From contig JAVLUZ010000521.1 in the NCBI GenBank assembly GCA_036768485.1, forward strand, positions 1 through 64,000: a stretch of 64,000 nucleotides of DNA. Direction: 5' to 3'. Below the pieces are notes generated by a model. It was not told where the DNA came from. It made no database searches and saw nothing but the letters and a program-made list of their open reading frames with translations. This document shows positions 11,462 through 52,602 of this stretch, piece by piece (within the stretch, counting starts at the first letter, position 1; every line of letters starts with the position of its first letter). Both the position numbers and the translations under genes were made by a program. This stretch comes from Mermis nigrescens. Lineage: Eukaryota; Nematoda; Enoplea; Mermithida; Mermithidae.

Positions 11462-11561
11462 NNNNNNNNNNNNNNNNNNNNNNNNNNNNNNNNNNNNNNN
11501 NNNNNNNNNNNNNNNNNNNNNNNNNNNNNNNNNNNNNNNNNNNNNNNNNNNNNNNNNNNNN
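11462..11561. other. Assembly gap (100 N)
   Basis: Exactly 100 undetermined bases, the usual placeholder for a scaffold join of unknown size. The DNA on the two sides need not be adjacent in the genome, and the missing 5' part of the Polinton could lie here. Confidence 1.
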
Positions 11562-13108
11562 GTAGTGTTATTTTGATATACCAAAAATAAATTTTGGTAT
11601 GATTTTGGTAGGCACTTGTTGGACTACCAATATCATATTTTAATTCTGAGAATTTTGGTATATCATATTCTTATCATATTAAAACTCCGGAAAATGTGAA
11701 AATATTTTTGATATAATTTTGGTATAATTTTGGTACAAAGTGGTAGCACTTCTTTCCTTCTTTCGCTCTATACCTTACCTGCAAATTTCGAAGCATGATG
11801 CAGTAGGTATTTTCCAGGTCATATCTTCATAATACATACTTAAGTATGCATACAGTATCGGTACCTACTTAATTATGTATGTACCTATACCCAACCAAGC
11901 CACCTCGCCTATTGTACATATGTATACTGTAGAGTCCGTTAAGGGACACAATTAGCGCAGTGTAGTATGATTGAGTGACATCCTGTCGAAATTGATAAAT
12001 GCATAACTTTTGGCAAGCTCAGCTCATTAAGGGTGGCCTAGATCTGGGAGATTTCAAAATCTCAGTTAGGTCAGTAAGTATGTACCACAACACATGACAT
12101 TGACCCATCAAATTATACTTGTTTTCTCGATTCTTGTTTGCCACCTGTATTGTTTACCGTTGTGATTCGCTAATAGTGATCATAGGTGCACAGCATACGT
12201 GGGCAGCAAGAACATTCTGGGTGAAAGCAAGATTTTTCAAAAGGTGAAAAAATGACCTTAAAAATAGTGGTACGGCGAAAAAATACCATTTTTCAACGTT
12301 CCTCATCGAGCACTATCCATTGGCATCAAGAAATTGCGAAAAAAACAAAAAATTTCAAAAATTGAATTCTGGGGGGGGGGGTATTTTGATTTCTGGGGGG
12401 TATTTTGGTTTCTCGGGGGGTGCATACCCCTAAACCCCCCCACGCTCAGGTGTGGTGCACAGCATGGGCGATTTGGGGCAGGGGTCAAGAATTCAGCTTT
12501 TGGGCCAAAATGACCTCAATAACTTGCATAAGCGCTTAAATAGCCTTAAAACCACAATATTACACTGTTTCTGGTCAATTTGGAACACTTGAAGAAAATT
12601 TTTAATTTGCATCCGGTTTTAGCCTTCATTTTGCCTCATTTTCCCTACAAAATTTTCCATCTTCCTATTCTGGGTGGTCTAGACCCCACATCCCCACGCA
12701 CATGTCTGATCGTTATTCCGAAATCTTGTTATTTGACGAAAAGTGAAAGGAATTTATGTAATTTTGTAACTTAATCTCGTAAATTTTGACAAGTTTTATA
12801 CATATATGAAAATTTTTTAAACAGCGTCTGGAAAATGCTTGTGCCTTTCCTCGAAAAATATTGATTACTTGCATTAGTCGTTTTGACTTTGATATACAAT
12901 AAACGAGTCTTAATTACCTGTATTTTGCTATAGGTATACATACATATGTACTTACCTACCAAAAGTATATTAAATATATACCAAATATCAAAAATATATC
13001 ATATTTTAAATGAAAAATAGCAGAATATCATATTTATATCATATTAAAACTAAGTCAACTATACCAATATCATATTTTAATTATTTTTGGGCTACCAAAA
13101 TAACACTA
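11562..13108. mobile_element. Non-autonomous TIR element inserted in a Polinton capsid gene
   Basis: The left end TAGTGTTATTTTGATA (11563-11578) is the inverse of the right end TACCAAAATAACACTA (13093-13108). Both ends also carry subterminal TATCATATT...ATATTAAAAC blocks. The interior is AT-rich and non-coding and contains a MITE at 12194-12454. Immediately right of it the Polinton capsid reading frame resumes, so the element interrupts or abuts that gene. The left flank is the gap, so the TSD cannot be checked. Confidence 0.55.
12194..12454 (+). mobile_element. G-tract hAT MITE, copy 1
   Basis: Starts CATACGTGGGCAGC and ends CACGCTCAGGTGTG, with an 8-bp target duplication GTGCACAG (12186-12193 and 12455-12462). 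The body has the family's conserved middle (CATTGGCATCAAGAAATTGC region), then poly-G runs separated by TATTTTGATTTCT. Ten members occur in this window; see the other entries. Confidence 0.9.
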
Positions 13109-13369
13109 ATTGCTAAAGAGGACAATAAAGGAAACAATATAACTCGAGAAGGGTTCAACGATGGTCAGTGCTTTTTTGCATTTGATCTCACTCCCGACGA
13201 AGATGACGGCGCCCATTGGGATCTAATTAGGGAAGGTACGACTAGCATTGAAATTTCCTTTGCAGAAAAAATTCCAGATACAGGTATCGAAGTAGTAGTT
13301 TACGCCGAATTTGATAATTTAGTAATGTTAGATAAGCATCGAAATGTAATATTTGATTATACTGCTTAA
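13109..13369 (+). pseudogene. Polinton major capsid protein, C-terminal fragment
   Basis: About 86 residues remain. The block FAFDLTPDEDDGAHWDLI, followed by an IEISFAEKIPDTGIEVVVYAEF stretch, matches the conserved C-terminal part of the double-jelly-roll major capsid protein of insect Polintons, as I know that family. This protein would form the icosahedral shell. The upstream part of the reading frame (13010-13108) belongs to the inserted TIR element, and a full-length family member would be several hundred residues longer. The fragment ends at a TAA three bases before the protease start, consistent with the usual capsid-protease gene packing. It cannot make a complete capsid protein as it stands. 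Confidence 0.7.
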
Positions 13370-13372
13370 AAG

Positions 13373-13881
13373 ATGAATACTATTCAGCTAATTAACGTTT
13401 TAAACAGCGACCAGGCGGTTGGTCGAGTTTTTTGTGGAGTTTTTCCGAACGATAAACTACCACCAATTTTTAGTAAACCATCTGCATTAGTTATGAATAC
13501 AGACCCTAGTAATCTGCCCGGCTCCCACTGGGTATGCTTGTTTTTCGATGCAAATGATAAATGCGAATATTTCGATAGCTACGGACTATCGCCTAGTGAA
13601 AAAACGCGCGAGTACGTACTAAAATATGCATCACAGTTAAAATATAATAAAAAATGTGTGCAGAAACCTCTAACATCTACGTGCGGACAATTGTGCGTAT
13701 ATTTTTTAGTATGGCGCTGCAGAGAAGTGCCTATGAAATTGATTTTACAAAGTTTAGAAAAAGCTTTTCTGATGAATTCGTTACCGGTTTTGTAAATAGT
13801 CTATTTAAGCTCAGCACAACAGTAGTAAATGAAGAATTTCTAGTTAATCAAATTGCTAATCAATGGATCAATTTTATGTAA
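13373..13881 (+). pseudogene. Adenovirus-type maturation protease (Polinton PRO), one frameshift
   Basis: The reading frame from ATG 13373 shows the adenain-family catalytic set: His52 in GSHWVCLFF, Asp68 in EYFDSYG, Gln97 and Cys104 in STCGQLC. Gln to Cys spacing is seven residues, as in adenain. In Polintons this enzyme is thought to process capsid proteins. Near 13735 the frame is broken. The frame reading IDFTKFRKSF (to 13881) carries the natural-looking C-terminus, while the original frame ends early at 13795. A one-base indel is the simplest reason. All catalytic residues lie before the break. The intact C-terminal frame overlaps the next gene's start by 19 bases. Confidence 0.8.
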
Positions 13882-14612
13882 CATTACCCAGTAACACTGT
13901 TAGCGATAAACAAAATACCCCATCTGAATTTACCGTACATTTGCCACAAAAAATTAAATTGACTGGAGATTGGGAATGTGGTCTATGTCAGCTAATCTAC
14001 CCACACAATTGGGAAACGCTAAAAACTGAAAAAACTGATATTCATATAACAGACGCTGATGACGACGATCATGTAATTAAGATACCGCTAGGGTGTTACG
14101 ACTCAATACATGAATTTGTTGAGACGATGCAATTCTGCCTTCTAAATGGGGGCGAAATTGTGAAAAAGGGAATATTTTTTAAATACTTTAGTACGATAAA
14201 GCGAGTACAAACAATAGTGTACAGTGAATTTGTAAAATCAGTAACATTACCACCAGAAATAACCAAAATTTTAGGGTTTCAAGATAAAATAACGAAATCA
14301 GTATGGGGCGTTAATGAACCAAACATGCACGTTGGGGGCATTGAAGTATTGTACATTTACGCAAATATTTTGGAACCACAAATTGTTGGAGATGTGGCGG
14401 CTCCCTTATTACGAATTGTTAACGTAGAAGGGTCCTACCCCAATATTATCGATAAAACCTTCGACTTTCCTCACTACGTACCTGTCCTAGTTAAAGATAT
14501 TTCAAGTATTGAAATTAATATTAAAGACGATTTAGATGAATTTGTTCCATTTATTTCGGGGAAAGTGATTGTCAAATTGCATTTCCGAAAAATTAAACCG
14601 TCCTACTTTTAA
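13863..14612 (+). CDS. Probable Polinton minor capsid (penton-like) protein
   Basis: An uninterrupted 249-residue frame from ATG 13863. The N-terminus (FYVTLPSNT, then EFTVHLPQKI and GDWECGLCQLIYPHNW) matches my recollection of the conserved start of the protein encoded next to PRO in insect Polintons. That protein is predicted to be a single-jelly-roll minor capsid or penton. It has no signal peptide or membrane segment. Its start overlaps the end of the protease frame, and its stop lies 48 bp before the TBP start. The frame is complete, unlike its two upstream neighbours. The functional name is from family knowledge; a profile search would be needed to confirm it. Confidence 0.6.
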   Translation: MDQFYVTLPSNTVSDKQNTPSEFTVHLPQKIKLTGDWECGLCQLIYPHNWETLKTEKTDIHITDADDDDHVIKIPLGCYDSIHEFVETMQFCLLNGGEIVKKGIFFKYFSTIKRVQTIVYSEFVKSVTLPPEITKILGFQDKITKSVWGVNEPNMHVGGIEVLYIYANILEPQIVGDVAAPLLRIVNVEGSYPNIIDKTFDFPHYVPVLVKDISSIEINIKDDLDEFVPFISGKVIVKLHFRKIKPSYF

Positions 14613-14615
14613 GGA

Positions 14616-14650
14616 TATAAATACTCGTGTTTTTCAATTAATTATCATTA
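14616..14650 (+). promoter_or_regulatory. Core promoter of the TBP-like gene (TATA box plus initiator)
   Basis: TATAAATA at 14616-14623 is followed by TCATTA at 14645-14650. Taking the A of TCATT (14647) as the start site, the first T of the TATA box is at -31, the canonical arthropod spacing. The predicted leader is only about 13 nt before ATG 14660. The site sits in the 48-bp gap after the minor capsid stop. It would be bound by TBP, so the gene could respond to its own product. Confidence 0.55.
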
Positions 14651-14659
14651 TTAATCAAA

Positions 14660-15193
14660 ATGGCTACGATTGTGAACGTCGTTTCAACAGCTCGGCTTTC
14701 CACAAAACCCCTAAATTTATACAAAATTAAGAAAAGTTGCGATGGGGTAGAGTTCGATCATAAGCGTTTCAATGCTATGATTATTAGATTAAAAGAACCT
14801 AAAGCAACAGGTTTGTTATTTAATTCGGGAAAATTAGTTTGTGTAGGTGCAAGGAGCGTACAAGAAAATAACATTGCAAACGAGAAAATTTGCAAATTAT
14901 TACAAACTAGTGAATATAAGCTACAACTTACCACTCATAAAATCCATAACGTCGTTGGCTCTGGCAATATCCATAGGCGAATAAACGTACCATCTTTCGC
15001 TAGAGCTTATCGCAAAATTGTTGAGTATGAACCCGAGTTGTTTTGCGCCGCAAAACTTACATTCCCAGATAGCAGAGCTACGGCGCTCATTTTCAGTTCT
15101 GGCAAGATCGTAATCACAGGTCTAAAAACTGAGTCGCAAGTACACCGATTTTATAAAAACGTTATTTTTCTCATAAGCCCTTTCCACATATGA
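14660..15193 (+). CDS. TATA-box-binding protein homologue carried by a Polinton
   Basis: Complete, intronless 177-residue frame covering just the TBP core. Two direct repeats are visible: residues about 4-90 and 94-177. All four DNA-intercalating phenylalanines are kept: Phe37 (KRF), Phe54 (LLFNSGK), Phe128 (YEPELF) and Phe145 (LIFSSGK). The paired asparagines are Asn6 (IVNVVST) and Asn97 (KIHNVVG). It lacks the long N-terminal arm of cellular TBP and ends near the normal TBP C-terminus. TBP bends TATA DNA and nucleates RNA polymerase initiation. Here it follows three Polinton capsid/protease genes on the same strand with its own TATA box, so it reads as part of the element. Divergent stretches (residues 68-93 and 129-138) argue against a recent copy of the host gene. 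A processed host pseudogene is the main alternative. Confidence 0.85.
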   Translation: MATIVNVVSTARLSTKPLNLYKIKKSCDGVEFDHKRFNAMIIRLKEPKATGLLFNSGKLVCVGARSVQENNIANEKICKLLQTSEYKLQLTTHKIHNVVGSGNIHRRINVPSFARAYRKIVEYEPELFCAAKLTFPDSRATALIFSSGKIVITGLKTESQVHRFYKNVIFLISPFHI

Positions 15194-15293
15194 GGTTATG
15201 TGTACATATAGGTTATATGTATCTGAGCAATATGTGATTAATCATACTACCTATACAGCACTTGTTGTGACCTGATCACAGCATTTTTAAATT

Positions 15294-15303
15294 AATAAAT
15301 AAA
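15294..15303 (+). terminator. Candidate polyadenylation signals downstream of the TBP-like gene
   Basis: Overlapping AATAAA hexamers at 15294-15299 and 15298-15303, about 100 bp after the TBP-like stop. They could end its transcript. Another AATAAA is at 15368-15373. Confidence 0.4.
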
Positions 15304-15674
15304 AAGTAGGTATGTAGTCTATAAAAGAAATGTCTATTCAGTGTAAACGCCCTTGGAATGTATAGAGAATAAAGTTTTTCTAGCGACACTTTGTCTAGTC
15401 TAGTGGTAGAACGTGGAACTTACGATTTAAAAACCTGAGGTTCGATTCTTGAAGGCATCAAATTTTATCAAAGACGAAAATGTTCTGAAATGATTAAAAT
15501 TGCTCCTTTATCAGTGAATGGTGTATCAAAAATTATGTGAACCAGATTCTGAAGAGTTTGTGAAGTTGATTAGTTTAGTACGAGTGATGGTGAATCATAC
15601 TTTTGAGTTAAACCCGTGAAAATGATGTTTCAAGTCTCCTTTACATTCGACCGAATTGCAGAGAAAATGCTCAG
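15304..15674 (+). other. Intergenic DNA with a decayed tRNA-like sequence
   Basis: Around 15390-15460 there is an A-box-like TAGTCTAGTGGTAGAAC and a B-box-like GAGGTTCGATTCTTG, the order and spacing of a tRNA. The T arm has one mismatch, the D arm pairs poorly and the acceptor ends do not pair, so it is a tRNA pseudogene or SINE remnant. The rest shows no gene. Confidence 0.35.
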
Positions 15675-15696
15675 GCTGAACAGCCTGGGCCCCCGA

Positions 15697-15796
15697 GCTA
15701 GCTCGCCCCAGCTAGCTCTGGGACTCCAAGGGGTATGGCCCGACCCCCTCCCCCAGGGCTAGCTCGCCCCAGCTTGCCCTGGTACTACAAGGGGTA
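15697..15796. repeat. GC-rich tandem duplication at the element 1 junction
   Basis: Two 39-bp units, 15697-15735 and 15758-15796, share GCTAGCTCGCCCCAGCT and ACAAGGGGTA or CCAAGGGGTA. They are far more GC-rich than the surroundings and lie just before the point where retroelement gag homology starts. They may mark a rearrangement junction. Confidence 0.6.
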
Positions 15797-15914
15797 CAGT
15801 GCACTTGTGCCTTCAAGTACAAGTGTACTGAGCTCGGCGCTTTGCGCCTATGCTTCAACATGTAGTATGTTTCAGCACGGAGACTCCAGAAGGTCCAGCT
15901 GTACTACTCACTTA

Positions 15915-17190
15915 AATCCGCCACCGCTGCAATATTTTCCGCCTACTGGCGAAACAGTTCCGAATAATTATGTACCAAATCCTGCGAATCTCGAAATACC
16001 ACTTATTAATCCTATTTTGCATTCTTCAAATATCGAAGTGCAACCTCTCGAAATAAATTTATCTGGCATAAATAATGAATCTGCTATTGTGCAAAATGAA
16101 TCTGCGCCTTTATCTGAGTCATCTACAAGGAGACGTCACATAAAATTTTCTGACAAAAGCTCGACGAGTAGCTACAATCGTCCATGTAGTCGTCGCTCGC
16201 GTCGCAAAAGTAAATCGCGCCAACGTTGTCATCGTCATAATTCGGACTCTTCATCTGAAGGCTCGTATGGTAAATTGCATCTCACTGATTCTTTAAATCG
16301 CGGACACTTTTTAGCACAAATGCAAATTGCAATTGCAAATAAAAAATTTTTTGATGCCGATAAAACTGATATACGAGGATATCTCGCTGAATTTGAGTCA
16401 CTGGCCGATACCTATGATATCGATAAAGCTGATCGCTTGAAATTTATGACAGCATTTCTCGATTCTTATGCTTCACGTTTATTCCATTCGTTACCTGCTG
16501 AGATAAAACAATCTTATTCCAAAACGAAACAAGCGTTAATAGTTTAATTTTGTCCAATGGACGCCGGAATGCTTTTTAATTGTTTTTTGACACATAAACA
16601 GCAGCCTAACAAATTGGTTAAAGCTTATTACCTCGCGCTTTGCAAAGACTTAATAAAAGCTGATCCTTATCTTGAAGTCGACTTGCATCATTTCAATTAT
16701 TTATTGCGACATCAATTGAAACAAGGTTTATTACTGCACATTTTGAAAGAGGCATATCATAAAAAACCTAGAGCATCACTGGCTGAATTTTTGGATAACG
16801 CGTTAAATGCTGAATTCGCTGAATCAGGAATTTGAGGATGATAAACAAGCAATAACACCGTATGTATTGGTAACAGCCGCTCCTGTAGGAAGCGCAATAA
16901 CTAAAGATACATCTTACGTGTCTAACCAAAATGAGCCAGATTGCTCGCGACAAAAAACGTTTCATTGCTCATCGCGTGCTGAAAAGCCAGAAAATTCTTC
17001 TCATAAATTTTGCACCTTTTGCAAGCGCATAGGTCATATCTATGATGAATGTTTTACGCATCAGCGACAAGAAGCGTCTAATAATAATTATACTCAGTCC
17101 GATCAAAATAATAACAATTCCATGGCTCGCAATCACAGCCAATCGCGTTCTTTTTGCACCAAAATCGTTTGCCATTGCGTTTGAATTCAC
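15915..17190 (+). pseudogene. Element 1 gag remnant (CCHC knuckle)
   Basis: The frame up to 16547 starts with NPPPLQYFPP-like sequence shared with element 2, then an Arg/Ser-rich segment (RRSRRKSKSRQR) and the capsid-like region. A frame change near 16550 leads to YYLALCKDLIKADP, and another near 16810 to the zinc knuckle CTFCKRIGHIYDEC (C-x2-C-x4-H-x4-C). Gag would assemble particles and bind the RNA. Two frameshifts make it non-functional. The stretch upstream of 15915 that is open in the same frame is unrelated junction DNA. Confidence 0.8.
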
Positions 17191-17239
17191 AAAATTGACA
17201 TCGTTCTCAATCGCGATTTTGTAATTCTAGTCAATATCC

Positions 17240-18350
17240 CTCATTCAATTATGCGAATAATGATAATCGCTTTGAATCTAAGCAAGCACAACCAAATTTT
17301 AGGCAAAATCGCAATGATTACCATCAAAATTTGCGTGCTAATTATCAAAATTCAGCATTACGGTAATCGCTATACCAATCAGTTGCAACAAAACGCACCT
17401 TTTGTGCAGTTCCCTAACAAACAGCGTGGAACATATTATAATTCGAACTATCGCAACAACAATGGGTTTAATCGCCCATACGTCACATATACTGTGGATA
17501 ACCAACCCACTGTAAACGCGCCCCCACTGCAGCCAACCCTTACGTCTCCTAATCATACGTGGGCAGCAAGAAATTTCTGGGGGGGTGTGCAAGATTTTTT
17601 GAAGGTCAAAAAATGGCCTTAAAAATGGGGTATGGTGATAAAAACACCATTTTTCGACGTTTCTCATCAAGCACTATCCATTGGCGTCAAAAAATTGCGA
17701 AAAAAGCGAAAAAAATTTTCAAAAATTGAATTCTGGGGGGGGGGGTATTTTGATTTCTGGAGGGGAAGGGGGTATTTTGGTTTCTGGGGGTGCATGCCCC
17801 CAAACCACGCCCAGGTGTGCTCCTAATGATGTAAACACGGTTACTGCAAAAGGGCTAGAAACTAGCACGCGTTCTAATTTATTCACGTCACAAGAATTTC
17901 TCAAAGAGTACGAACGCTTACAGCGTCGTCTCTGCAATTTATGAAAAAATAAATTCGCCTCCAGTTAAAACCATCGATCCAAATATTCCTATCGTAAGCC
18001 ATGCTGGGACAAATTTGCCCACTATTCTCGTTAAAGTATCATGGCATAGACGTACCCGCTCTCATAGATACAGGTTCACAGGTCACCATGATGACCACGT
18101 CTGCATTTTTGCGTCTTGGCTTTAACTTACCACCTAAACAAGTCTCTCAAGTTGTTCATGGCGTAGGTGAAATAACCGCAGTAGTTTGATATAAAGTAAA
18201 TATGACTCTCACTGTCGCTGAACAATCTATCTCTACCACAGTAGCTATCATAGATCATTTGCCGGAAGACATGCTCTTGGGATATGATTTTTGTGAATCC
18301 GCACTCATGTGAGTTAATCCTATCAAACGTTGTGCTTTTATAAATGGCAT
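17240..18350 (+). pseudogene. Element 1 pol N-terminus: Asn/Tyr/Gln-rich linker and aspartic protease
   Basis: The linker (about 17380-17555) corresponds to the Asn/Tyr-rich start of element 2 pol. It is split by the 266-bp MITE at 17554-17819 and resumes as NLFTSQEFLKEYERLQRRL. The retropepsin motif ALIDTGSQVTMM follows near 18058-18093, with the active Asp-Thr-Gly intact. Stops at 17941 (TGA in frame), 18187 and near 18310 break the frame. This enzyme would cleave the Gag-Pol precursor. Confidence 0.8.
17554..17819 (+). mobile_element. G-tract hAT MITE, copy 2, inserted in element 1 pol
   Basis: CATACGTGGGCAGC start, CACGCCCAGGTGTG end, and a perfect 8-bp duplication CTCCTAAT (17546-17553 and 17820-17827). 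Removing it and one TSD copy brings the two halves of the pol linker back together, confirming insertion into the retroelement after that element had arrived. Confidence 0.95.
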
Positions 18351-18363
18351 AAAAATTAATCTG

Positions 18364-19389
18364 TTGTCATCATACAAAAAATTGCAATTTTGCGCGAAAC
18401 TCAACACGACTACCTCTGGTGTTGTGTGTGTGCATGTTTTGTTGCCTGAGCCTGTAATTATACAACCTCGGCATGAATTAATCACACCTGGCTATATCAG
18501 TCATGGTTCTTGTGATTTCAATTTTGCATTATTCGAACCGAATCCCAATTTTATGGAAAAAACTTCACTTTTTGTTGCTCCATCTATAGCCGATGCTTCA
18601 CAACCTGTAATCCCTGTTCGCGTTTGTAACATCTCTAAAGCGCCAATTCGCATCGACTCTGGTGATATAATAGGTTCTTTAACCCCTGATGCCGAAGTCG
18701 TGTCTCATGTCTCAAATTTTGATGATAGGACACCTGAGCTTTTTGCGTCAATAAATAAAGCTTTAAACGGCTCCGCCGTTGATTCTCGACAACAGCAACA
18801 AATTTGTGAACTTTGCTTAAAATACGACTCTATTTTTGCTTTAAAAAATGAGCCTCTCGGACGTACCCCTTTGATGAAACATCATATTGATACAGGGGAC
18901 AATCCACCCATTGTGGGGAAAACTTATCGTGTTGAGCATTCTAGAAGAGAATCTATGCAAAAAATCATAAATGAAATGCTTGCAGATAAAATTATTCGGC
19001 CTACGACAAGTCCATGGGCAAGTCCATTGTTTCTCATAGGAAAAAAGGACGGTTCCCTAAGACCTGTTGTCGATTACCGCCATTTAAATGACGTAACTAA
19101 AACGCAAGTTTACCCTCTTCCTCAACTTGACGATTATTTCGATACCTTAGGCTCTGCCGCGTATTTTAGCACGTTAGATCTAAAATCCGGTTACTGGCAA
19201 ATTCCTCTCGACAATAAATCTCGCAAAAAAACTGCATTTATATGCCCTGTTGGCCATTACAAATTTGAAGTTTTACCTTTTGGTTTAAAAAATGCGCCCA
19301 CAGATTTTCATAGGCTAATGGAGCTTGTGCTCGCCGGTCTCAATTGGAAATCTTGCCTTGTTTATATCAATGATATAATCATTTTTTAG
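18364..19389 (+). pseudogene. Element 1 reverse transcriptase with a damaged active site
   Basis: A 341-residue frame aligned with element 2 RT: SPWASPLFLIGKKDGSLRPV fingers, LDLKSGYWQIPL with the first catalytic Asp, FEVLPFGLKNAP, then the box that should read Tyr-Ile-Asp-Asp. Here it reads VYINDIIIF, so the first Asp of the pair is Asn, and a TAG stop follows at 19387-19389. RT copies the element RNA into DNA. The Asn change and the stop mean this copy cannot do so. Confidence 0.85.
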
Positions 19390-20373
19390 CGCACGTTTAA
19401 AGAACATTTAAAAGATCTTGAAAATGTCTTCATTGCTCTAAAAAACGCAAACTTACGAGTCAAGCCTGATAAATGCCATCTCGCTCATGCTGAAGTAAAA
19501 TTTCTTGGCCATAGTATAAGTTCATTGGGCATTGCTCCTGATATGTCTAAAGTCGCAGACTTAGTCGCGTTTCCTGTACCAAAAACCGTTAAATCTTTGC
19601 AGAAATTCCTTGGTTTAGTCCAATGGTTTAAGAAATTTGTTAAAGATCTCGCTAAAATTGCTAAACCATTATTCCATCTTCTTCGCAAAGATGTCAAATT
19701 TTGCTGGAAGGCCGAACACCAAACCGCTTTTGAGCTTCTTAAAAAAGCATTTACGTCCCCACCAATTTTGCAATTACCAAAATTTGACAACGAGCACCAA
19801 TTTGTCTTAACAACTGATGCAAGTAACTATGCGTTAGGTGCTATTTTGACTCAAAAACACTTACCATCAAAAAGTCGTTTCATTCTTAGCTACGCTAGTC
19901 GCGTGCTAAATTCTGCCAAATGTAATTATGCTACATTGGAGAAAGAAGCGCTAGCAGTAGTGTGGGCCATCAAGCATTATTGACATTATCTATACGGTAA
20001 AAAATTCATTGTCGAAACCGATCATCAAGCATTAACTTGGTTAGTAAATGTAAAAGACCCATTGAGTCGTTTACGCCGTTGGGGTCTCAAATTACAAGAG
20101 TACGAATATAATATCGTGTATGTTCCTGGCGCATATAACTGCGCAGCGGATCTCTTATCACAACATCCTAAGTACGATCATGCAGAACGCAAATATAAAC
20201 TCAAATGTAAAAATGTTGTTAACATTGCAAATTTAGACTCGGAAGACTCTGAATCCGAGGACGAATCGGTTCCACCGGACCAATCACGCAATAATACGCC
20301 TAATGCAACAAATAATAATCCTAATTCACAAACTAATAATCCTACTGCGCCCAATCGATCCAACAAATTCTAA
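19390..20373 (+). pseudogene. Element 1 RT connection and RNase H
   Basis: The frame continues after the stop with the RT thumb (KCHLAHAEVKFLGH region, 19470-19510). RNase H follows: LTTDASNYALGAIL (near 19806), EKEALAVVWAIKHY (near 19940), a TGA at 19981, VETDHQAL (near 20012) and the C-terminal AYNCAADLLSQHPKY. The catalytic acidic residues are present. RNase H removes the RNA strand of the hybrid. The internal stop makes it a pseudogene. Confidence 0.8.
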
Positions 20374-20379
20374 ACCACC

Positions 20380-21887
20380 TATGTTTCGCGGACGCATTCA
20401 AGTGACTGATGCAGAAAAAGCTGAAATGCTAACACCTGCGTGCTTACTCGCAGAGCAACGCACTGATGACGAATTACATAAAATTTGCATCGCGTTGAAT
20501 GATTTAACAACGAAAAAATATTGTGATGAATTTTTTCTTGTAAACAATGTTCTTTTTTGTCGTTTCCAACCTAAGCGTTTGCCAACCATCGTCCATCAAA
20601 TTGTTATACCAAAATCATTGCGTCGTTTTGTATTAACCGAATTTCATGATTCTATATTTGGAGCACATTTTTCATCGCGCAAAATTCTGCCCGCCATACA
20701 AATGCATTATTGGTGGCCGCACGCATGGAAAATGATGTGATCGCGTGGTGTAGGAATTGTGATGTGTGCTTACAGCGTAAGGTCGCATTAAATTCCACAT
20801 CTGTTCCTTTGCAACCAATCAAAGTTTCCACGCCTTTTGAACTTATTGCGTGTGATTGCTTGCATATGCCGCGATCCCCCTCCGGAAATGACCAAATCGT
20901 AGTTTTTATGGATTATTTTACCAAATACGTGGAAGCTTTTGCTGTTTCTGACATAAAAGCAACAACAATTGCAAATCTGTTGCTAAGAGAAATTATCCCG
21001 CATTACGGAGTTCCCAAAAATTTTTGACAGACCAGGGTTCAAATTTTACATCTACCCTAATTTTGGAAGTCTGTAAACTATTAAATGTTCAAAAAATATT
21101 TACGACCCCATATCAACCTCAGTGTGATGGCCTTGTGGAATGCTATAATCGCACCTTAATTGATGGATTGTCTAAATTGAGTGCACAAAACCAGTATGAT
21201 TGGGAGCAATTTTTACCATTTGCATTATTCGCGTATTGCGCAACTCCTCAATCATCAACTAACATCTCTCCTTTCAAAATGCTATATGGTCGCAAACCCG
21301 CGTTTCCTCTCGACACTTTACTTATAAATGACTTTGTGATAAATCCGAATTTACAGCCCATTGCGGAAAAATATGTCATCGATTTAAAGCTGACTTTACA
21401 AGATCTACATGAAATCGCGTCTAAGAATTTAGCGCAAGCGCGTAAGCAGCAAAAATCTCAATATGACAAATCTGTAACCGCAACTAATTTTTCTGTTTCG
21501 GATATCGTCTATCTCAATAATACCTCAGTAATTCAACCCGAAATCGGTAAATTATCGCCTAAACGTGTTGGTCCTTATCGAATTATTGCGTTACCTACAC
21601 CAGAAACTACAAAAATTGCTTATGTCTATAATCCTCTAATCACCCATCATGTTCATTGGAATAGACTTTTACCTGAGCCTAAACTACCATACTCGGATCT
21701 AATTGCCGAGAAGCACGCATATGTTCCTGGCAATTTTGTTTTGGTAAAACTACCACATCGCCCTCTCGCCCCAGCAGTAGTGATAAGTTTTGCAGACTTA
21801 CCGGGCAGGGAGCAAAAAGCAAGGGACTGCGCGCCAGTACGTTTATTAAATGGCTCTAAAACGGCACATGCCAGTACCATTATCTGA
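20380..21887 (+). pseudogene. Element 1 integrase
   Basis: The HHCC finger is recognisable (EFHDSIFGAHF near 20638, then CRNCDVC near 20753). The first catalytic Asp is in IACDCLHMP (20850 region), the second in TDQGSNF (21027 region), and Glu in CDGLVECYNRT (21124 region). A frame change near 20730 splits the finger. Another lies between the first and second Asp at a T5 run (21011-21015), and element 2 also changes frame at the equivalent T5 run. Near 21850 the C-terminal frame shifts again; the natural C-terminus (PLSDVFPFADPWL) continues under the start of the next ORF, as in element 2. Confidence 0.8.
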
Positions 21888-21908
21888 CGTTTTTCCTTTT
21901 GCAGACCC

Positions 21909-22988
21909 ATGGCTGACGAGGGTGCCCCATGCAAAGAGGCGCTCCTGGAGTCAGCTGGTCGCCGATTTACATTTGAAGGACGCGATCCAGCGACCCTAGA
22001 TGAGTTCTGTACGGCGTTGGTGGATATGGCCACCGAACGGGGGTTGGACTATCCAGACCTGTTGCCACAAAATGACGATCAGCGCGTTAATAGTTTAGAG
22101 GCATTAAGCGCAAAACAAATACATTATAAAAATAAAAATGATGCTAAGTACCACCGAAAACGTATAAATGAGCAGGAACTCTGGTGGGACAACACGTTTG
22201 GATGGTATCTGCTGGCGACCCTTCGCGTGCCAAAGCAGAACATTCTCCAAACCGTGTTAGTCACCAATGACCAGGACTCGTATTCTGGCTATTTTAGCTT
22301 TGTTACAGCCGTCAAACCTGATACATGGCAAATTGTTTTTAGGCTATGACTCTGAGTTTGTAAATGACAGAAAAACTCGAAATTATAAAAATTGGGACGA
22401 GCGTTTTAAGCAATTTTGCCCACGTATCAGGACACTAACGGACCATTTGTCCGTTTCATTCAGCTGGCCAGTGCATACGGCCATGTGTTCTGTTGGAATG
22501 TATCTTGCTTTCCCAAACCACCTTTTGGGTTGCACCAATTACTAGCAACGTCTCTCTCGGACGTACGGTTAGTGTGCCACAACCCGTCGCAAGATAAAAT
22601 TGCGTATTTTCACGTTTTTGGACCAACGTTCGAACAAATTATGGCAATTCCTGATGCCAAAATTCGCCGTAATCTGCATTGGAAAAATCCTTTCAAGGCG
22701 ATTTTCATTAACATACTTACCAATGCTTACACGTTCACTCGACGCCAAAAGATTACAGCTTACTCGCATAAGCTAAAACGTTTGGCAGAGTTTTTCTTCG
22801 ATATGTTTATCAATAAAAATGACCCTGACAATTGGGGTCAAGCGTGGAGCTTACCGCTAACACACAATATGCAGGTCTATATGGCCTTAGATCCTTTGAT
22901 CACTATCGACGTCTTCATATTGATGGAGGCATGCTCACAAAATAACCGAATTAACGGAAGATATGAAACCATTGCCCTTTTCCTTTAA
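21909..22988 (+). pseudogene. Element 1 exonuclease-like ORF (extra retrotransposon gene), frameshifted
   Basis: Starts at ATG 21909 in the CCATGGCTGA context also used by element 2, overlapping the integrase C-terminus in a different frame. It is split over three frames (21909-22349, about 22320-22440, 22416-22988). The conserved blocks are LGYDSEFVND with an Asp-x-Glu, GPFVRFIQLASAYGHVFCWN, KIAYFHVFG, LKRLAEFFFDM, and GQAWSLPLT followed by MALDPLITIDVF. These follow the order of DEDDy-type 3'-5' exonuclease motifs (RNase D/EXD-like). The conserved Tyr of motif III appears as Tyr before MALD. It lacks a clear motif II Asp, like element 2. Confidence 0.6.
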
Positions 22989-24711
22989 AGATGACGAATT
23001 ATACATTAAAAAAGGTGAAACAAAATCGAACGTGCAATGCCCATTGTCTCGCACGCCTTTGCAAGGCCAGTCAACCAGCTTGGTGGCTGAGGTCACTGTA
23101 AGTTTGGATGGCAAAGAAGTTGTAACGCCGTTAGACTTCTATACGCCGCTTCCACTGACAGAAGCAGCCATAGCCGCGGCTACTTTGGTTGACACAATGG
23201 CTACCAGCCCGTTGCATGACAATGTTAGGGAAAACCCTAACTTAGCGGTTCATAAGTTGCAGGCCAATGCCAGCCTACAGCTGGGCCTGCCCGTAGCAAC
23301 TGTTTCCCAACCACCAGTTGTCAGTGCAATTTCGCCAGCCTCTGCGACTACCTCGCAAGCTGATATGCAATTTGAATCTCCCATGGTCGGAATAGAACCA
23401 TCTGAACCCACGGATCAGGCAGACTTATCACCCAAACGTCTTCTAATCGCTGTGTCGGATTCTGAAACCGAAGACCAAGCGAATTTATTGCCCTCCAAAA
23501 CTGGACGTATTTTAACTGCTCCAGGAGGTGCCATTCTTGTAACACAAGCGATCCCTTCGCAATCACTCGCAACGCCGTCGCACGCATTTTTGGGTACCGG
23601 GCCATTGCTTCCTTTACCAATGTCGCAGTCAGATTGGGCAGAACGCCACCCTGGGCCTGATATAATAATGACTGAAATTTAGGGTTTGCCTCTGCAACCA
23701 CAACAAACGCTGCCACCCCAAGAGGCGCAGCAGGCTGCGCTGTCAACGCAAATCGCGTCGCAAGACGTGCCACCAGCTGCGTTAAATTTGTCTTTGCAGC
23801 ATACTGGTGCTCGCTTTAATGCACCTATGCCTATGACCAGTATATCAGATACAGTCGTGCGCGCACAGCCACAGGGTATCCAAAATATACCATTGGATGC
23901 GGATGTTGCAATTCCTCCGCACATACAAGCTATGCGTGAACGCGCAGCAGCCGAACAAAACGCACAGGAGCAAAACCGCTCACGTTATATGACACATTTC
24001 TTTCAAATGATGGAAAAGTTGAGCCGTGACGCACCGTGCTATATTGTCCCTGACGTTTTGCACAATTTGCGCACCTATTTGGGCGAAATTGAAGGTTCTC
24101 GTTTGTATGACAAGCTGCTAGAACTTGCTCAAGTGCATTTCAATAACATTTATGCAGCTCCCTTGAGTTATGCGTCCATGGCCAACGCACCCCAACGTCC
24201 TCTAATTTGGACAACCAATGCGCAGCCCACAACAGACTTTGAACGTGGACCATTGCCCCGTTTTATAACATAAATGAGCGTTCTTCAACGCCTGTTTTTC
24301 CCAGATGAGTATTTTGTGCGCAACTGTTTTTTCATCACCACCGGAATGATGCTTTATGAGGTTCCGCTGGAAAACTTGGTCATTCACCAAAACCTCAAAC
24401 CACTGAGTGTTGTGAGTGAAAACCAAGCTTTGAACATCCAACCAGAAATTCTGCCGCACCAAGTGTGCCCGGCACAGGACCATTTAGCACCGTTGCTGAT
24501 CTCTACACGCCAAATGATTGATGTTTTTGATAATTTCCGAGAATTTCAAAAAGAATATGAATCGGAATACCGGTTCATGCCAATCTTTTCATCGATAGAT
24601 GTCATGCACGTGCAAGTGCTATTAGAATTTTTGGACAGAAGGTTTCACTTTTTTGCTTTCGCTTACAGAAGCACCGCTATAGCTTGGCGTATAGTAAAAC
24701 AGCTGCGTTGA
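22963..24711 (+). pseudogene. Element 1 second extra ORF, N-terminal and middle parts
   Basis: One reading frame from 22963 to 24711, interrupted by TAG at 23680-23682 and TAA at 24271-24273. The beginning (LPFSFKDDELYI) aligns with the C-terminal part of the element 2 exonuclease ORF (PGFTFEGDE), so exonuclease and second ORF may once have been one protein. The middle is Pro/Ala/Thr/Gln-rich. The region 23985-24711 is conserved with elements 2 and 3, notably FFITTGMMLYEVPLENLVIHQ and RQMIDVFDNFREFQKEYES, then AYRSTAIAWRI. I recognise no family and see no signal peptide or membrane helix. Confidence 0.6.
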
Positions 24712-26045
24712 ATTTTGCATGTGGCTTTCCTTAGCCCGTCTTACACGCCAACGCCAATTGATGCTTTTCCGGAGTTCCCACAATTGGCTGAATGGATTGA
24801 AAATCTGACAGAGTTGCACAGCATAATCCGAACCATTCGGCTACAAACCAATCCACCAATTGCTGTTCCCGTGCAATTTGATTGATTTAACAATCGCCAA
24901 AAATTGGCTTTTTACTTAAAACACCGTTTGCAACCGGAATTAGAAAAATCCGCAAAGAGAGACAACAGGCCTCTTTGCAAGATCCGCGTGGGTCTACGGC
25001 AAACCTTGTAAGGCCTGAAGTTGATCTGTCCGTACAGGCACAAATTGAAATGCAAAAAGCGCGCATGGTTATTGAACAGCGCGAAAGAGAAAATCTCGCT
25101 ACCGAACTTCCGAGGCATGTGACGCGCTTGCGTTGCGCCGGTTTGCTTACGGTCGCCTCAGGCATTTGTCAAATGCCGGAAGACGAACATCGTAGGCAAA
25201 TAAATGAATTTTACGACACAAAATCTGAACGCACAATCCGTCGTTTGAAAAATCTAGAAAAAGAACGCGTAAAAAGGCTTGTTCACGCGGAAGTCTGCGC
25301 AAAATTGCAAGCACATGCTAGCCAAAGGGGCCACAGGCAGCAAGATCCGCAATTGTCCCGGCAATTGCACACTCAACTGCAATCGTGTTCACAATCACAA
25401 TCAAAATCACAAATAAAACCTTATGCACAGACACAATCGCACCCGCAAACCCAACTGCGGCAACAACAATATTCGGTATCGCGCTCGCATTCCGAGACGT
25501 ATTCAGAGGCAGATGCTGGTCATATGTTGTGCTCGCAACAGCAGCAGCCTCGCGAATACCATCAACAAGCACACCGCGGAACTCATCAGGGTCGGTCGCA
25601 ATCACGCCAACGTCAACAAGTGGATCAATTGTTTTATTCACCGTCGCACCAGGGCCAACCAGCCAATCAGGTCTATTCGCAACCACCACCTCGACAAGAG
25701 CCATTATTGCCACAACCGTGGCCCGCTACTCAACCAAAAGAGCGGTCACGCAATTCTTCTTGCGAACAATCTTATGGATTTAATCTGGAACCATATTTAA
25801 TGCCGGTTCCACCGACACCACGTCGTTACGTGGATGACTATGACGATGACGACAACAAAGATGACCATCGACCAGTTGATCCTCATCGTAGTTTACGTCA
25901 ACACATGTATGGACGTAGGGAATCACCATATTGTGAAAGGGAGCGTTTGAATATGCGTCGCGAAATGGATTCGGATCGCGAATATTTCCAACGCCATCGC
26001 GGTAAACCGCGCGGCTCGAAGGCCAATTATCGAGATCAATATTGA
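24712..26045 (+). pseudogene. Element 1 second extra ORF, C-terminal Gln/Ser/Arg-rich part
   Basis: After the TGA at 24709-24711 the frame continues with SPSYTPTPIDAFPEFPQLAE (conserved with element 2), hits a stop near 24880, and shifts near 24940 into a 356-residue open frame. The conserved VDLSVQAQIEMQKARMVIEQ block opens that frame. The rest is very rich in Gln, Ser, His and Arg (many SQSQ, HPQTQ, RQQQ runs) and ends with Arg/Asp/Tyr-rich repeats. Such a tail suggests RNA binding or condensation, by inference only. No ATG opens the frame near its start. Confidence 0.5.
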
Positions 26046-43152: not shown

Positions 43153-44583
43153 TCAATGGCGTTTATGGTCGGGTTTTGACGTCGGAAAGAAACGAGACGA
43201 TTGAATCGAGCGACGAGACGAGTCGCTCGAGTCTGTAGAGCGACGATGCGACGGACGATCCTCATCCAATAAATTTATGCGCGGTTGCATGCGTTTGCGC
43301 AGGCTACGATGTTCGTCGTACGAAACGGCATCCGGCGATGGTGCCTCGAATCCGTAATAAACTCGTGGTTGACTAGACGGAGTAGCCGGACGGCGGAACT
43401 CCTCGAACCTTTGATCACGGCGCGGTGGAGAAGGAAAGCGCCCAAAACTACCGGTTTTGCGCGAAGGAGAGCGCGAATGGTATGGTTGTGGTTGTGGTTG
43501 ACCCCAAAACTCATTTGACCGGGAGATTGAACGGCGTTCGTGTTGCGGCCGATCGAGACTAACGGTTGACCGCGGCGACCAACGCGTTGGTGATGGGCGA
43601 CGCCCAACACCTTCGCGTTGACGCTGCGGCGAATGCTGCTGCGACGATTCGAGCTGCCGCTGTTGATAACCGCCGACGTTGTCAGCCGACCGCTGCAACC
43701 AATGCGTCGGTAATGAGCCACGCCCAAAACCTTCGCGTTGATGCAACGGCGACCTTTGGCGCTGCACTGCTCGCGGCGGCGGGGTTGAACGCGGCCGATG
43801 TTGCTGCGATGACCGCTGCTGCAATTGCTCACGTGGCGTCGACGTTGCCGGTAACTGGGGCGAATTCTGCCTGAAACGAGACAAAGAAGAGGGTCCGGGT
43901 TTGTTTTCAGATGGCTTCGATAATAACGCCAGTTGGCGATGGATCATTGCTTGCCTCTCGCGTCGCTCTCGTCGTTTTTGGTTGGCACGCATAGCTCGTT
44001 GAGTATGTTCGTATTTATTCCGGACGTATCGGCTGGCCCTTAATAAAGGAATGGCTTTGTGATAGGATCGTAAGCGTTCCATGTACGTGTTCTCATCCTC
44101 ACGTCTTATTTCAGAGGCCACGGCTAAAGAGCCTGGCTTACGTGCAACAGTAACGCGTGGCAATGGTGGCATCGGTTGAGTTTCACGGTCGGCTTTCTCG
44201 ATTATCATTCGGGCCTGGCGCAAATCGATCTGAGCCTGTGAAGAAAGATCTGTCACGTTTCGTCGTTTCTTTGCTTGGGGGCCACTTGGGCCCTCCGAAT
44301 CAGCGGCTCGTTTCTGCAATTGACGTCTCTGCTGGTTTTGGCAAATATTGTTCAATTCGTCAGGCAGTTTTTTCAGAAGATAATGCGAAGAGTGTTGGCG
44401 CGATTTGTGGCGACCAAATTGGGCAGGCACCGTTAAGTCAGGATCTGTGGCTTCGCGAATTAGCTGAATATCATGATGTAGCACAACCGGATCCTCAATT
44501 TCTTCCGCTAACTCAGGAAATTCTACAAAGGCTTCCCTCGGAAATTGAGTATACGTCGGACCAAAGAAGGCGGCACGAAGCAT
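43153..44583 (-). CDS. Element 2 second extra ORF, C-terminal part
   Basis: 476 residues in the same frame as the two upstream pieces, after a TGA at 44587-44589. It opens with GPTYTQFPREAFVEFPELAE, conserved in all three elements, and then VTDLSSQAQIDLRQARMIIE, conserved with element 1 (VDLSVQAQIEMQKARMVIE). A basic RAADSEGPSGPQAKKRR stretch could act as a nuclear signal. From about residue 230 the sequence is dominated by Arg, Ser, Gln and Pro. A duplicated unit of about 30 residues (HSPQRQREGVGRRPSPTRW and its neighbour) and an SDSSRRSIQSSR end resemble RS-type RNA-binding tails. No transmembrane helix or signal peptide. Function unknown; RNA binding is inferred only from composition. Confidence 0.65.
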   Translation of the reverse strand: MLRAAFFGPTYTQFPREAFVEFPELAEEIEDPVVLHHDIQLIREATDPDLTVPAQFGRHKSRQHSSHYLLKKLPDELNNICQNQQRRQLQKRAADSEGPSGPQAKKRRNVTDLSSQAQIDLRQARMIIEKADRETQPMPPLPRVTVARKPGSLAVASEIRREDENTYMERLRSYHKAIPLLRASRYVRNKYEHTQRAMRANQKRRERRERQAMIHRQLALLSKPSENKPGPSSLSRFRQNSPQLPATSTPREQLQQRSSQQHRPRSTPPPRAVQRQRSPLHQREGFGRGSLPTHWLQRSADNVGGYQQRQLESSQQHSPQRQREGVGRRPSPTRWSPRSTVSLDRPQHERRSISRSNEFWGQPQPQPYHSRSPSRKTGSFGRFPSPPRRDQRFEEFRRPATPSSQPRVYYGFEAPSPDAVSYDEHRSLRKRMQPRINLLDEDRPSHRRSTDSSDSSRRSIQSSRFFPTSKPDHKRH

Positions 44584-44586
44584 CCG

Positions 44587-44895
44587 TCAAATTTGTTCAC
44601 ACATTCGCCAGGCGATTCCAGGATCACCATACAATGTCGCGAAGATGAAGAAACGTTGATCCGCAAAGATGAAGAAACGTTGATCCATATAGCGCAACAG
44701 TGATGTAGCTTGCAACACGTGCGCAGTAGCGAACACCGGTTCGCGGCTGAAAGTGGTTTCGTATTCTCTCTCAAATTCACGAAACGCTTCAAAAATGTCA
44801 ACCATTTGCCGCATCGTCAAACACAACGGCGCCGTATGATCAGGCTGAGGCTGGATACGATGCGGAAAGAACTCAGGCTGAATTGTGACACCGAG
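44587..44895 (-). CDS. Element 2 second extra ORF, middle part between two TGA codons
   Basis: Open in the same frame as the pieces before and after, bounded by TGA at 44896-44898 and 44587-44589. It holds RQMVDIFEAFREFEREYET and GDPGIAWRM, both conserved in elements 1 and 3. It includes a 24-bp tandem duplication (about 44643-44690) that repeats DQRFFIFA, absent from the other two elements. Element 1 has no stop at the first site but has a TGA within one codon of the second. Confidence 0.55.
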   Translation of the reverse strand, partial: LGVTIQPEFFPHRIQPQPDHTAPLCLTMRQMVDIFEAFREFEREYETTFSREPVFATAHVLQATSLLRYMDQRFFIFADQRFFIFATLYGDPGIAWRMCEQI

Positions 44896-45825
44896 TCAAA
44901 TGCTCATTTGCGGCGGCGTCGGCTGAAAAGAATGATTTGCGACGTATTGGATGTTTACTTCGTAGACCATATAACCGGTTGTGATGAACATGCGGTTTCG
45001 CGTGAACAATGGATCTGGATAGAACTGGCGGTGGAAGACAGAAGGCTGCGTAATAAAACGCGGCGCAACCTGATTCCTAAACGCCTCGTTCGGATCCGGG
45101 TCCGTGGGTAAGCGTAGCGGAATGATTGGCCTCTCCGGCGGATTAGAAATTTGACAATACTGCAAATAACGGGCGTACATCGAGTTGTAACACAGTTGAA
45201 TATCAGTACGCAGACCTGTGTACAATTCCAAACCTGCTTCTGGCCCAAGCCAATCGCGAAAATTGAGAAAATTATGGATAGACAGGCAAGGTTGACCTGT
45301 TTCCTGCAATTCTTGCATGGTTTCCTGAAAATAATTCGCGTAGGCGGTTGTTCGCCGTTGTTCTTTGTTATCCTGCACCTGCATCGGCTGTTCAGCCGGA
45401 GTTAGGACAACTGGTTCCGTCGGTTTTGGCTGCAAAATTTGAGGAATACGCGTCGACGGCAAAGGCTTGGCGGCAAAAGGCAACGTCATTGAGGCCATGA
45501 TATTTAGGATATCCGTCGGCACTGAGTAAGCAGGCGGAGGAGGAGCCACTGAAGCTGGAGCAGCTTGTAAGGGCTCAAAACGCGATTTCCGAGTACGTGC
45601 CGGTTGAGAAACAAAAGGCAAATTTTTGACATCCAGGGGCCGACCTAGCGGAGCGCTGGTTGCGGCCACAACTGGTACCCTATCTAAAACGTTTGTATCC
45701 ATCGGTTCAGGCACATTACGCGATGTGGATTGCCGATTAGAGAGAATATCGTCGAGAGACCTGCTGCTGCGTCGGCGATGGCGGACGCTGAGAAGGCGGC
45801 AAAAATGGCGGCCTACCCTGGTCAT
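44896..45825 (-). CDS. Element 2 second extra ORF, N-terminal part
   Basis: 309 residues from ATG 45825, overlapping the end of the exonuclease ORF by 89 bases in the +1 frame. The first half is Arg/Ser/Pro-rich and variable. The second half is conserved: an ANYFQETMQELQETGQPCLS helix region, LYTGLRTDIQLCYNSMYARY, then RFITQPSVFHRQFYPDPLF and MFITTGYMVYEVNIQYVANH. Elements 1 and 3 carry the same last block. It ends at a TGA where element 1 reads on. I recognise no known domain. Confidence 0.65.
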   Translation of the reverse strand: MTRVGRHFCRLLSVRHRRRSSRSLDDILSNRQSTSRNVPEPMDTNVLDRVPVVAATSAPLGRPLDVKNLPFVSQPARTRKSRFEPLQAAPASVAPPPPAYSVPTDILNIMASMTLPFAAKPLPSTRIPQILQPKPTEPVVLTPAEQPMQVQDNKEQRRTTAYANYFQETMQELQETGQPCLSIHNFLNFRDWLGPEAGLELYTGLRTDIQLCYNSMYARYLQYCQISNPPERPIIPLRLPTDPDPNEAFRNQVAPRFITQPSVFHRQFYPDPLFTRNRMFITTGYMVYEVNIQYVANHSFQPTPPQMSI

Positions 45826-51415: not shown

Positions 51416-51524
51416 AGGTTGACGATTTTGGCTTTGATCGCGATATCTAGGCTTAGACTGAGGCCGATTATTATAATTTGAGCGCGACGATGAACGATTA
51501 CGATTATTCCAAGAACGCGACTGA

Positions 51525-52559: not shown

Positions 52560-52602
52560 GGAGTCGTCGTTAGGATTTGCTAAATTATCGTGCGCTGAAA
52601 AA

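What the first reader, a model, noticed from the sequence alone, without database searches (positions are those of the whole stretch)
14660..15193. A TATA-binding protein homologue encoded by a Polinton/Maverick element
Seen: an intact, intronless 177-codon TBP core with all four intercalating phenylalanines (37, 54, 128, 145) and both symmetry-related asparagines (6, 97). It starts 48 bp after a probable minor capsid gene on the same strand. Known: Polintons encode capsid, protease, polymerase and integrase; TBP is not among their standard genes as I know them, though some large DNA viruses carry TBP-like proteins. Inference: the element supplies its own promoter-recognition factor to redirect host transcription or work where host TBP is limiting.
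Basis: partly seen in the sequence, partly recalled or inferred. Interest (0 to 1): 0.92.

Follow-up and report, generated by a model that had tools for sequence, protein, structure and literature searches.

The report
Polinton elements carrying their own TBP
Virus-like mobile elements called Polintons, present in many copies in an animal genome, carry their own intact-looking copy of the TATA-binding protein that starts gene transcription, so they may switch on their own genes with their own promoter-recognition factor.

The parts
14660..15193 (+). TATA-binding protein core, 177 aa, last gene of the element
13863..14612 (+). penton (minor capsid) protein, 249 aa
13373..13795 (+). adenain-like maturation protease, 140 aa
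   Evidence: PF00770 Peptidase_C5 3.7e-8
13120..13369 (+). 3' remnant of the major capsid protein gene (frame 13010-13369); the rest is missing in this copy
   Evidence: nucleotide homology with the complete C44 copy starts at 13120; 99% over 83 aa to the 441-aa MCP frame of C44, 40% over 80 aa to the L024 MCP
14616..14623 (+). TATA box (TATAAATA) between penton stop and TBP ATG
   Evidence: a TATA box at this place in 29 of 29 loci shown, in all four TBP subfamilies
15217..15908 (+). 3' terminal inverted repeat of the element, ending ...ACTACT; contains TATAAAAG (15320) and a tRNA-like stretch
   Evidence: homology to the window stops at 15908-15911 in 16 of 30 loci; same sequence inverted at the 5' end of the C44 copy, 98.9% over 706 bp

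Best explanation
This is the promoter-recognition gene of a Polinton/Maverick lineage. The window holds a 5'-truncated copy (13120-15908) of a roughly 14-kb element whose last gene, just inside the 3' terminal repeat, is an intronless TBP. Shown: the gene is a standard part of this element family, TBPs also sit beside ATPase-like genes in further element families of the same genome, the TBP subfamilies are much more diverged than their present copies, they have kept the TBP fold and the DNA-intercalating and TFIIB-facing residues, they evolve under purifying selection, and about half of the element genes tested, TBP included, are preceded by a strong TATA box. Inferred: during element expression this TBP replaces host TBP on the element's TATA promoters, recruits host TFIIB and Pol II, and through its altered convex surface depends less on TFIID TAFs and on regulators such as TFIIA, NC2 or Mot1; it feeds back on its own promoter. 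This would let the element make its proteins in tissues or at times when host TBP is limiting or repressed.
For: Element gene: 150 scored matches in G000 (lower bound; 1856 first-look candidates), 91 without internal stop by hand count of the table. Penton directly 5' in 46 of 48 loci examined. 24 of 150 copies have a PF03175 PolB match within 20 kb, 23 of them upstream on the same strand and 20 at 9.6-13.8 kb; 0.9 expected by uniform placement (80 PolB loci taken from the capped list). Complete C44 copy: TSD CCTGGG, TIRs, AGTAGT/ACTACT ends, PolB, rve plus chromodomain, protease, penton, TBP. Selection: dN/dS 0.18-0.25 in the five pairs with dS 0.2-0.6. Kinship: genome A-D plus four short TBPs from public assemblies are one clade, 100/98 and 98/96, apart from cellular and IMG/VR virus TBPs. 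Host TBP is separate. Binding residues: in 41 near-complete copies F37 41, F54 40, F128 40, F145 40, N97 41, N6 39. Promoters: TATAWAWR in 11 of 21 upstream windows of two elements, shuffled mean 1.24, maximum 5 in 500 shuffles.
Against: No expression, binding or transcription data. The TATA motif was chosen after I had seen the spacers, the 21 windows come from two related elements and are not independent, and start codons are guessed (first ATG of the frame). Ten of 21 windows have no box: integrase, ATPase, protease and penton, one unnamed frame in each element, and the MCP of the B-type element; PolB was not tested. Strong TATA boxes would also serve host TBP. PolB loci with a TBP of the searched kind within 20 kb are only 23 of 80, so many Polintons may do without, or carry a more divergent TBP. 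Loss of TFIIA/NC2/Mot1/TAF contacts is read from sequence with recalled contact lists.
Confidence: 0.6

Rival explanations
1. Host-shutoff decoy: the naked TBP core occupies host TATA boxes, TFIIB or TFIID surfaces and lowers host transcription, rather than activating element promoters.
For: No N-terminal domain; part of the conserved surface of cellular TBPs is changed. That it could compete with host TBP is inference.
Against: Residues facing TFIIB (E124, E126, L127; role recalled) are kept in 39, 39 and 41 of 41 copies, which a pure decoy would hardly need; element genes have TATA boxes themselves. An integrated element gains little from harming its host (inference).
Confidence: 0.15
2. Pol III or TIR role: the protein serves a Pol III-type or terminal-repeat promoter, or bends terminal DNA in replication or packaging.
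For: The TIR holds TATAAAAG and a tRNA-like A/B-box stretch (about 15390-15461, seen; the box consensus is recalled). TBP serves all three polymerases (recalled).
Against: ARAGORN and Rfam call no tRNA there; TATA boxes are in front of protein genes.
Confidence: 0.12
3. Retrocopied host TBP that landed beside a Polinton fragment and hitch-hiked.
For: Intronless; on one copy alone this would be the default.
Against: Same place in 46 of 48 loci, a complete element, four diverged subfamilies under purifying selection, 35% to host TBP.
Confidence: 0.01
4. Passenger gene kept for another purpose (for example transcription of a co-infecting virus).
For: Only 23 of 80 PolB loci have a TBP of this kind within 20 kb; a giant virus with virophages encodes a TBP (passage), so shared transcription with a larger virus is conceivable.
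Against: dN/dS about 0.2 and TBPs in several element lineages and in L024.
Confidence: 0.1

Closest known systems
Polintons/Mavericks (Polintoviricetes; animal members also called adintoviruses)
   Same: PolB, rve integrase with chromodomain, adenain protease, penton, capsid gene, TIRs, 6-bp target duplication, AGTAGT/ACTACT ends as described for vertebrate Mavericks (PMC8097293, section 7 read)
   Different: Carries a TBP gene; in the two A- and B-type elements read the recognised genes lie on one strand with TBP last, while vertebrate Mavericks have two convergent modules with no TBP among the listed core genes
TBPs of giant viruses and mirusviruses
   Same: Virus-encoded TBP; mirusvirus TBP cluster in 59% of genomes (PMC10132985, passages); giant-virus TBPs reported (PMC11464507, PMC12085832, passages)
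   Different: Those genomes are large and the cited ones also encode RNA polymerase subunits or TFIIB. The IMG/VR TBPs form separate clades. Here a 14-kb element with no other transcription gene that I could recognise
Heliorhodopsin-bearing mobile elements of the alga Cymbomonas (putative mirusvirus kin)
   Same: Integrated repeat elements that sporadically hold a TBP gene, in a genome that also has Polinton-like viruses (PMC10675990, passages)
   Different: [quoted passage not shown] linked to HK97-type capsids (same passages)
TBP-related factors (TRF1, TBPL1, TBPL2)
   Same: Paralogous TBP cores used on a subset of promoters (recalled)
   Different: Host genes; the insect TBP rows in the tree do not group with the element clade; TBPL1 and TBPL2 were not included

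Membership tests
Polinton/Maverick | protein-primed-type family B DNA polymerase | tested here: met
   PF03175 2.5e-42 in the C44 copy; absent from the truncated window copy; protein priming itself not tested
Polinton/Maverick | retrovirus-like rve integrase (with chromodomain) | tested here: met
   PF00665 2.4e-12, PF00385 6.4e-10 in C44
Polinton/Maverick | adenain-type protease | tested here: met
   PF00770 3.7e-8 in the window, 3.4e-8 in C44
Polinton/Maverick | single jelly-roll penton | tested here: met
   [not shown]
Polinton/Maverick | double jelly-roll major capsid protein | tested here: inconclusive
   PF21738 only 0.064 in C44 and 0.028 in L024; position and 38% kinship to the L024 frame fit; no model made
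Polinton/Maverick | packaging ATPase | tested here: inconclusive
   Pox_A32 2.3e-4, below its cut-off
Polinton/Maverick | terminal inverted repeats and 6-bp target-site duplication | tested here: met
   TIR 98.9% over 706 bp, TSD CCTGGG in C44; one copy only
TATA-binding protein | two TBP repeats, saddle fold | tested here: met
TATA-binding protein | four intercalating Phe and the two symmetry Asn | tested here: met
   window: all six; near-complete copies: 39-41 of 41 each
TATA-binding protein | TATA DNA binding and PIC assembly | not testable with these tools
   needs protein biochemistry
giant-virus TBP clade | groups with virus TBPs of IMG/VR | tested here: not met
   20 of 21 IMG/VR loci in the tree (L018, split frame, left out); the eukaryote-type virus rows form their own clade (100/99), the five short TBPs another (100/99)
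[quoted passage not shown]
   definition from PMC11071296 passages

The most novel reading that the evidence does not exclude
Polintons acquired a eukaryotic TBP early and have kept it across lineages and habitats as an element-specific promoter-recognition factor with its own TATA-promoter set: a private general transcription factor in a virus-like transposon without its own RNA polymerase. Its rapid divergence and mosaic exchange between elements would reflect competition between elements, or with the host, over promoter control.
Probability: 0.4. Interest if true: 0.9.

Novelty: new variant of a known kind. Interest (0 to 1): 0.82.

Why it matters
No transposon or small virus that relies on host Pol II is known to me to bring its own TBP. 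If it works, it is a natural orthogonal TBP/promoter pair in an animal nucleus and a way to ask which TBP surfaces are needed for a minimal Pol II start. It also adds a transcription gene to the Polinton set and a further point of comparison with TBP-bearing large DNA viruses.

Tried and rejected
Retrocopy of host TBP: rejected. IMG/VR for relatives: seven scans with TBP, penton, MCP, protease and alignments gave no locus; the broad TBP alignment gave 21 virus loci, none with a penton in the stretch held. Phage collection with the penton: none. PHROGs: none. Rfam and ARAGORN on the window: none. Of the three MAG contigs holding a penton, L022 looks by eye like an assembly chimera with bacterial genes, L023 has penton, MCP and protease but no TBP in the 8.4 kb held, L024 has a TBP. 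A single origin of all Polinton TBPs tested (A-D, E-H, L024, four short ones) is not the best tree but not rejected (p-AU 0.32; 0.39 for the five short TBPs plus L024). E and H TBP families: no penton or ATPase match in the 3.1 kb held (a weak protease match, 27%, in H), so their place in Polintons is not shown. The penton query against the own genome did not complete, so I cannot say how many pentons lack a TBP. A stricter adjacency count, with only the longest penton frame, gave 43 of 48. 'Not reported' rests on ten searches of an open-licence library and on term look-ups, not full reading, in PMC10675990, PMC10132985, PMC7786948, PMC11071308, PMC12220804, PMC10120064, PMC4028283, PMC8097293, PMC11071296, PMC11464507, PMC12085832; the 2021 adintovirus paper is not held.

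Full report

Is it part of the element? The own-genome search, unreachable thirteen times, answered: the host genome has 524 Mb in 860 contigs and at least 150 matches to this TBP (150 scored of 1856 first-look candidates), mostly in groups at 100-97%, about 70%, 65-61% and 59% identity, with a tail below; 91 of 150 have no stop inside (hand count). I read 48 loci: the 30 best (window copy included) and 18 stop-free ones that I chose from the more divergent groups. In 46 of 48 a penton piece ends less than 400 nt 5' of TBP on the same strand; the two exceptions (L079, L082) have an altered TBP start and no penton match in the stretch held. A stricter count with only the longest penton frame gave 43 of 48. 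PolB (PF03175) matches lie within 20 kb of 24 of 150 TBP copies, 23 upstream on the same strand, 20 of them at 9.6-13.8 kb; uniform placement predicts 0.9 (80 PolB loci from a capped list). Some of these are probably assembly duplicates, so they are not all independent. The other way round, 23 of 80 PolB loci have such a TBP within 20 kb.

A complete copy. On contig C44 (TBP 98%) three stretches read apart show: start at 2918471, end at 2932670, target duplication CCTGGG on both sides, inverted repeats 98.9% over 706 bp, ends AGTAGT/ACTACT; on one strand PolB (2.5e-42), integrase with chromodomain (2.4e-12, 6.4e-10), an ATPase-like frame (2.3e-4, below cut-off), further frames, a capsid frame (441 aa), protease (3.4e-8), penton and TBP as the last gene, about 23 bp before the repeat. 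(AGT)2/(ACT)2 ends are the commonest vertebrate Maverick ends (PMC8097293, section read). Homology to the window stops at 15908-15911 in 16 of 30 loci and starts at 13120 in the C44 copy: the window copy is the 3' 2.8 kb of such an element, followed directly by sequence that belongs to a Gypsy-type element. The C730 copy is identical to the window past the element end as far as it is held (16690) and is probably the same insertion assembled twice.

Where does it come from? Four of the five best hits in 5.8 billion proteins are short sequences from 1.1-1.4 kb contigs of public assemblies, 173-177 aa, that likewise start at the core (42-49% for three, 38% for the fourth); the fifth, P0244, is a three-repeat protein that groups with archaeal rows. 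With the four genome subfamilies they form one clade, 100/98 and 98/96. Shared traits include a one-residue insertion before the LNL motif (window and three of the four) and Phe at the place of human A324 (all five). The clade lies inside eukaryotic TBPs with a long stem, apart from the insect, plant, algal and IMG/VR virus rows. The host's own TBP matches in two pieces 2.7 kb apart on contig C73 (69-70% to Trichoplax); together they are 86% identical to human TBP over 162 residues and 35% to the window TBP, and group with animal TBPs. So no recent retrocopy.

More than one Polinton lineage has a TBP. brought further TBP families. Two (F: L097, L098; G: L102) sit head-to-head with an ATPase-like frame, with short integrase matches near by in the F loci. 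An 11.6-kb contig filed under a Planctomycetota MAG (L024, isolate 'Dive96_bin10.66'; deep sea by its name only) has the same TBP-ATPase head-to-head arrangement in an element with an rve integrase match (3.7e-7, under its cut-off), penton, capsid frame and protease, and a 172-aa TBP (frame 2.2e-45). The tree does not join L024 with F/G, nor all Polinton TBPs in one clade, but one clade is not rejected (p-AU 0.32). Either one old gain with fast divergence, or several gains. That L024 is eukaryotic contamination of the MAG is inference; its source organism is unknown.

Selection. Nei-Gojobori dN/dS for 19 TBP pairs: 0.249, 0.185, 0.184, 0.241, 0.195 in the five pairs with dS 0.2-0.6; 0.49, 0.38, 0.16, 0.47 in four pairs with dS under 0.1 (few changes); 0.15, 0.08 and 0.10 in three pairs at or near saturation; seven pairs have no finite dS. 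Subfamily identities run from 70% (A-B) to 51% (C-D). In 41 near-complete copies, many of them near-identical, each of the six DNA-contact residues is kept in 39 to 41, and E124, E126, L127 (TFIIB side, recalled) in 39, 39 and 41. Of 57 columns that are at least 90% conserved in 44 TBPs taken as cellular eukaryotic, the window keeps 33; losses include human R188, N189 and N193, and in helix 2 human R235 and K243 are E75 and T83 in the window. I recall these surfaces as TFIIA, NC2, Mot1 and TAF contacts.

Promoters. A TATA box precedes TBP in 29 of 29 loci shown, in all four subfamilies, although the rest of the spacer differs between them. In the C44 and C47 elements TATAWAWR occurs in 11 of 21 windows 15-110 nt before start codons; 500 dinucleotide shuffles gave a mean of 1.24 and at most 5. 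The motif was chosen. Five of the boxes share an extended GTCTATAWAAGA. The ten windows without a box are those of integrase, ATPase, protease, penton, one unnamed frame per element, and the B-type MCP.

How it most likely works. Shown: gene, position, divergence, selection, predicted fold, kept residues, TATA boxes. Inferred: the protein binds the element's TATA boxes, recruits host TFIIB and Pol II, and bypasses part of the host's control of TBP; it also drives its own gene. Rivals are host shutoff, a Pol III or TIR role, and a passenger role. No activity has been tested.

Novelty. Virus TBPs are known in mirusviruses and giant viruses, and a TBP turns up sporadically in mirusvirus-like mobile elements of an alga (passages). 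I found no report of a TBP in a Polinton in the searches listed under Tried and rejected. I call it a new variant of a known kind: a Polinton with a new functional class of gene.

Noticed in passing
window 13863-15193 and L049-L054, L083-L085: Mosaic evolution: between subfamilies A and B or D the penton differs little (dS 0.35-0.41, 94-96% identity) while TBP in the same elements is at or near synonymous saturation (59-70% identity); A-B identities run PolB 80, integrase 76, ATPase-like 75, MCP 85, protease 72, penton 96, TBP 69%. This suggests exchange of the penton or of TBP between element lineages.
   Followed up: partly
window 15390-15461: tRNA-like stretch with A-box- and B-box-like motifs (recalled consensus) inside the Polinton terminal repeat; ARAGORN and Rfam do not call it.
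   Followed up: no
L024 (JAJRVU010000309.1): A Polinton-like contig with integrase, capsid genes, protease and TBP filed in a Planctomycetota MAG; GAGTGTC..GACACTC palindromes near both ends.
   Followed up: partly
G000 C502, C326, C584, C59, C51, C44 (L097-L102): Further TBP families in the host genome: F and G opposite an ATPase-like gene, E (186-aa frame) and H (175-aa frame) of unknown context.
   Followed up: partly
window 11462-11561: Assembly gap of 100 N, 1.5 kb upstream of the element remnant.
   Followed up: no
window 15909-26045, 35-38 kb, 43153-53634: Gypsy-type LTR elements around the Polinton remnant: reverse transcriptase match in one frame, a second copy 71% alike on the other strand, and by eye a third; extra 3' ORFs of unknown function.
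   Followed up: no
G000 C51:9200613- and C51:9212943+: Two TBP copies, each 100% identical to the query, in opposite orientation 11.8 kb apart; eight other neighbouring pairs lie within 20 kb.
   Followed up: no
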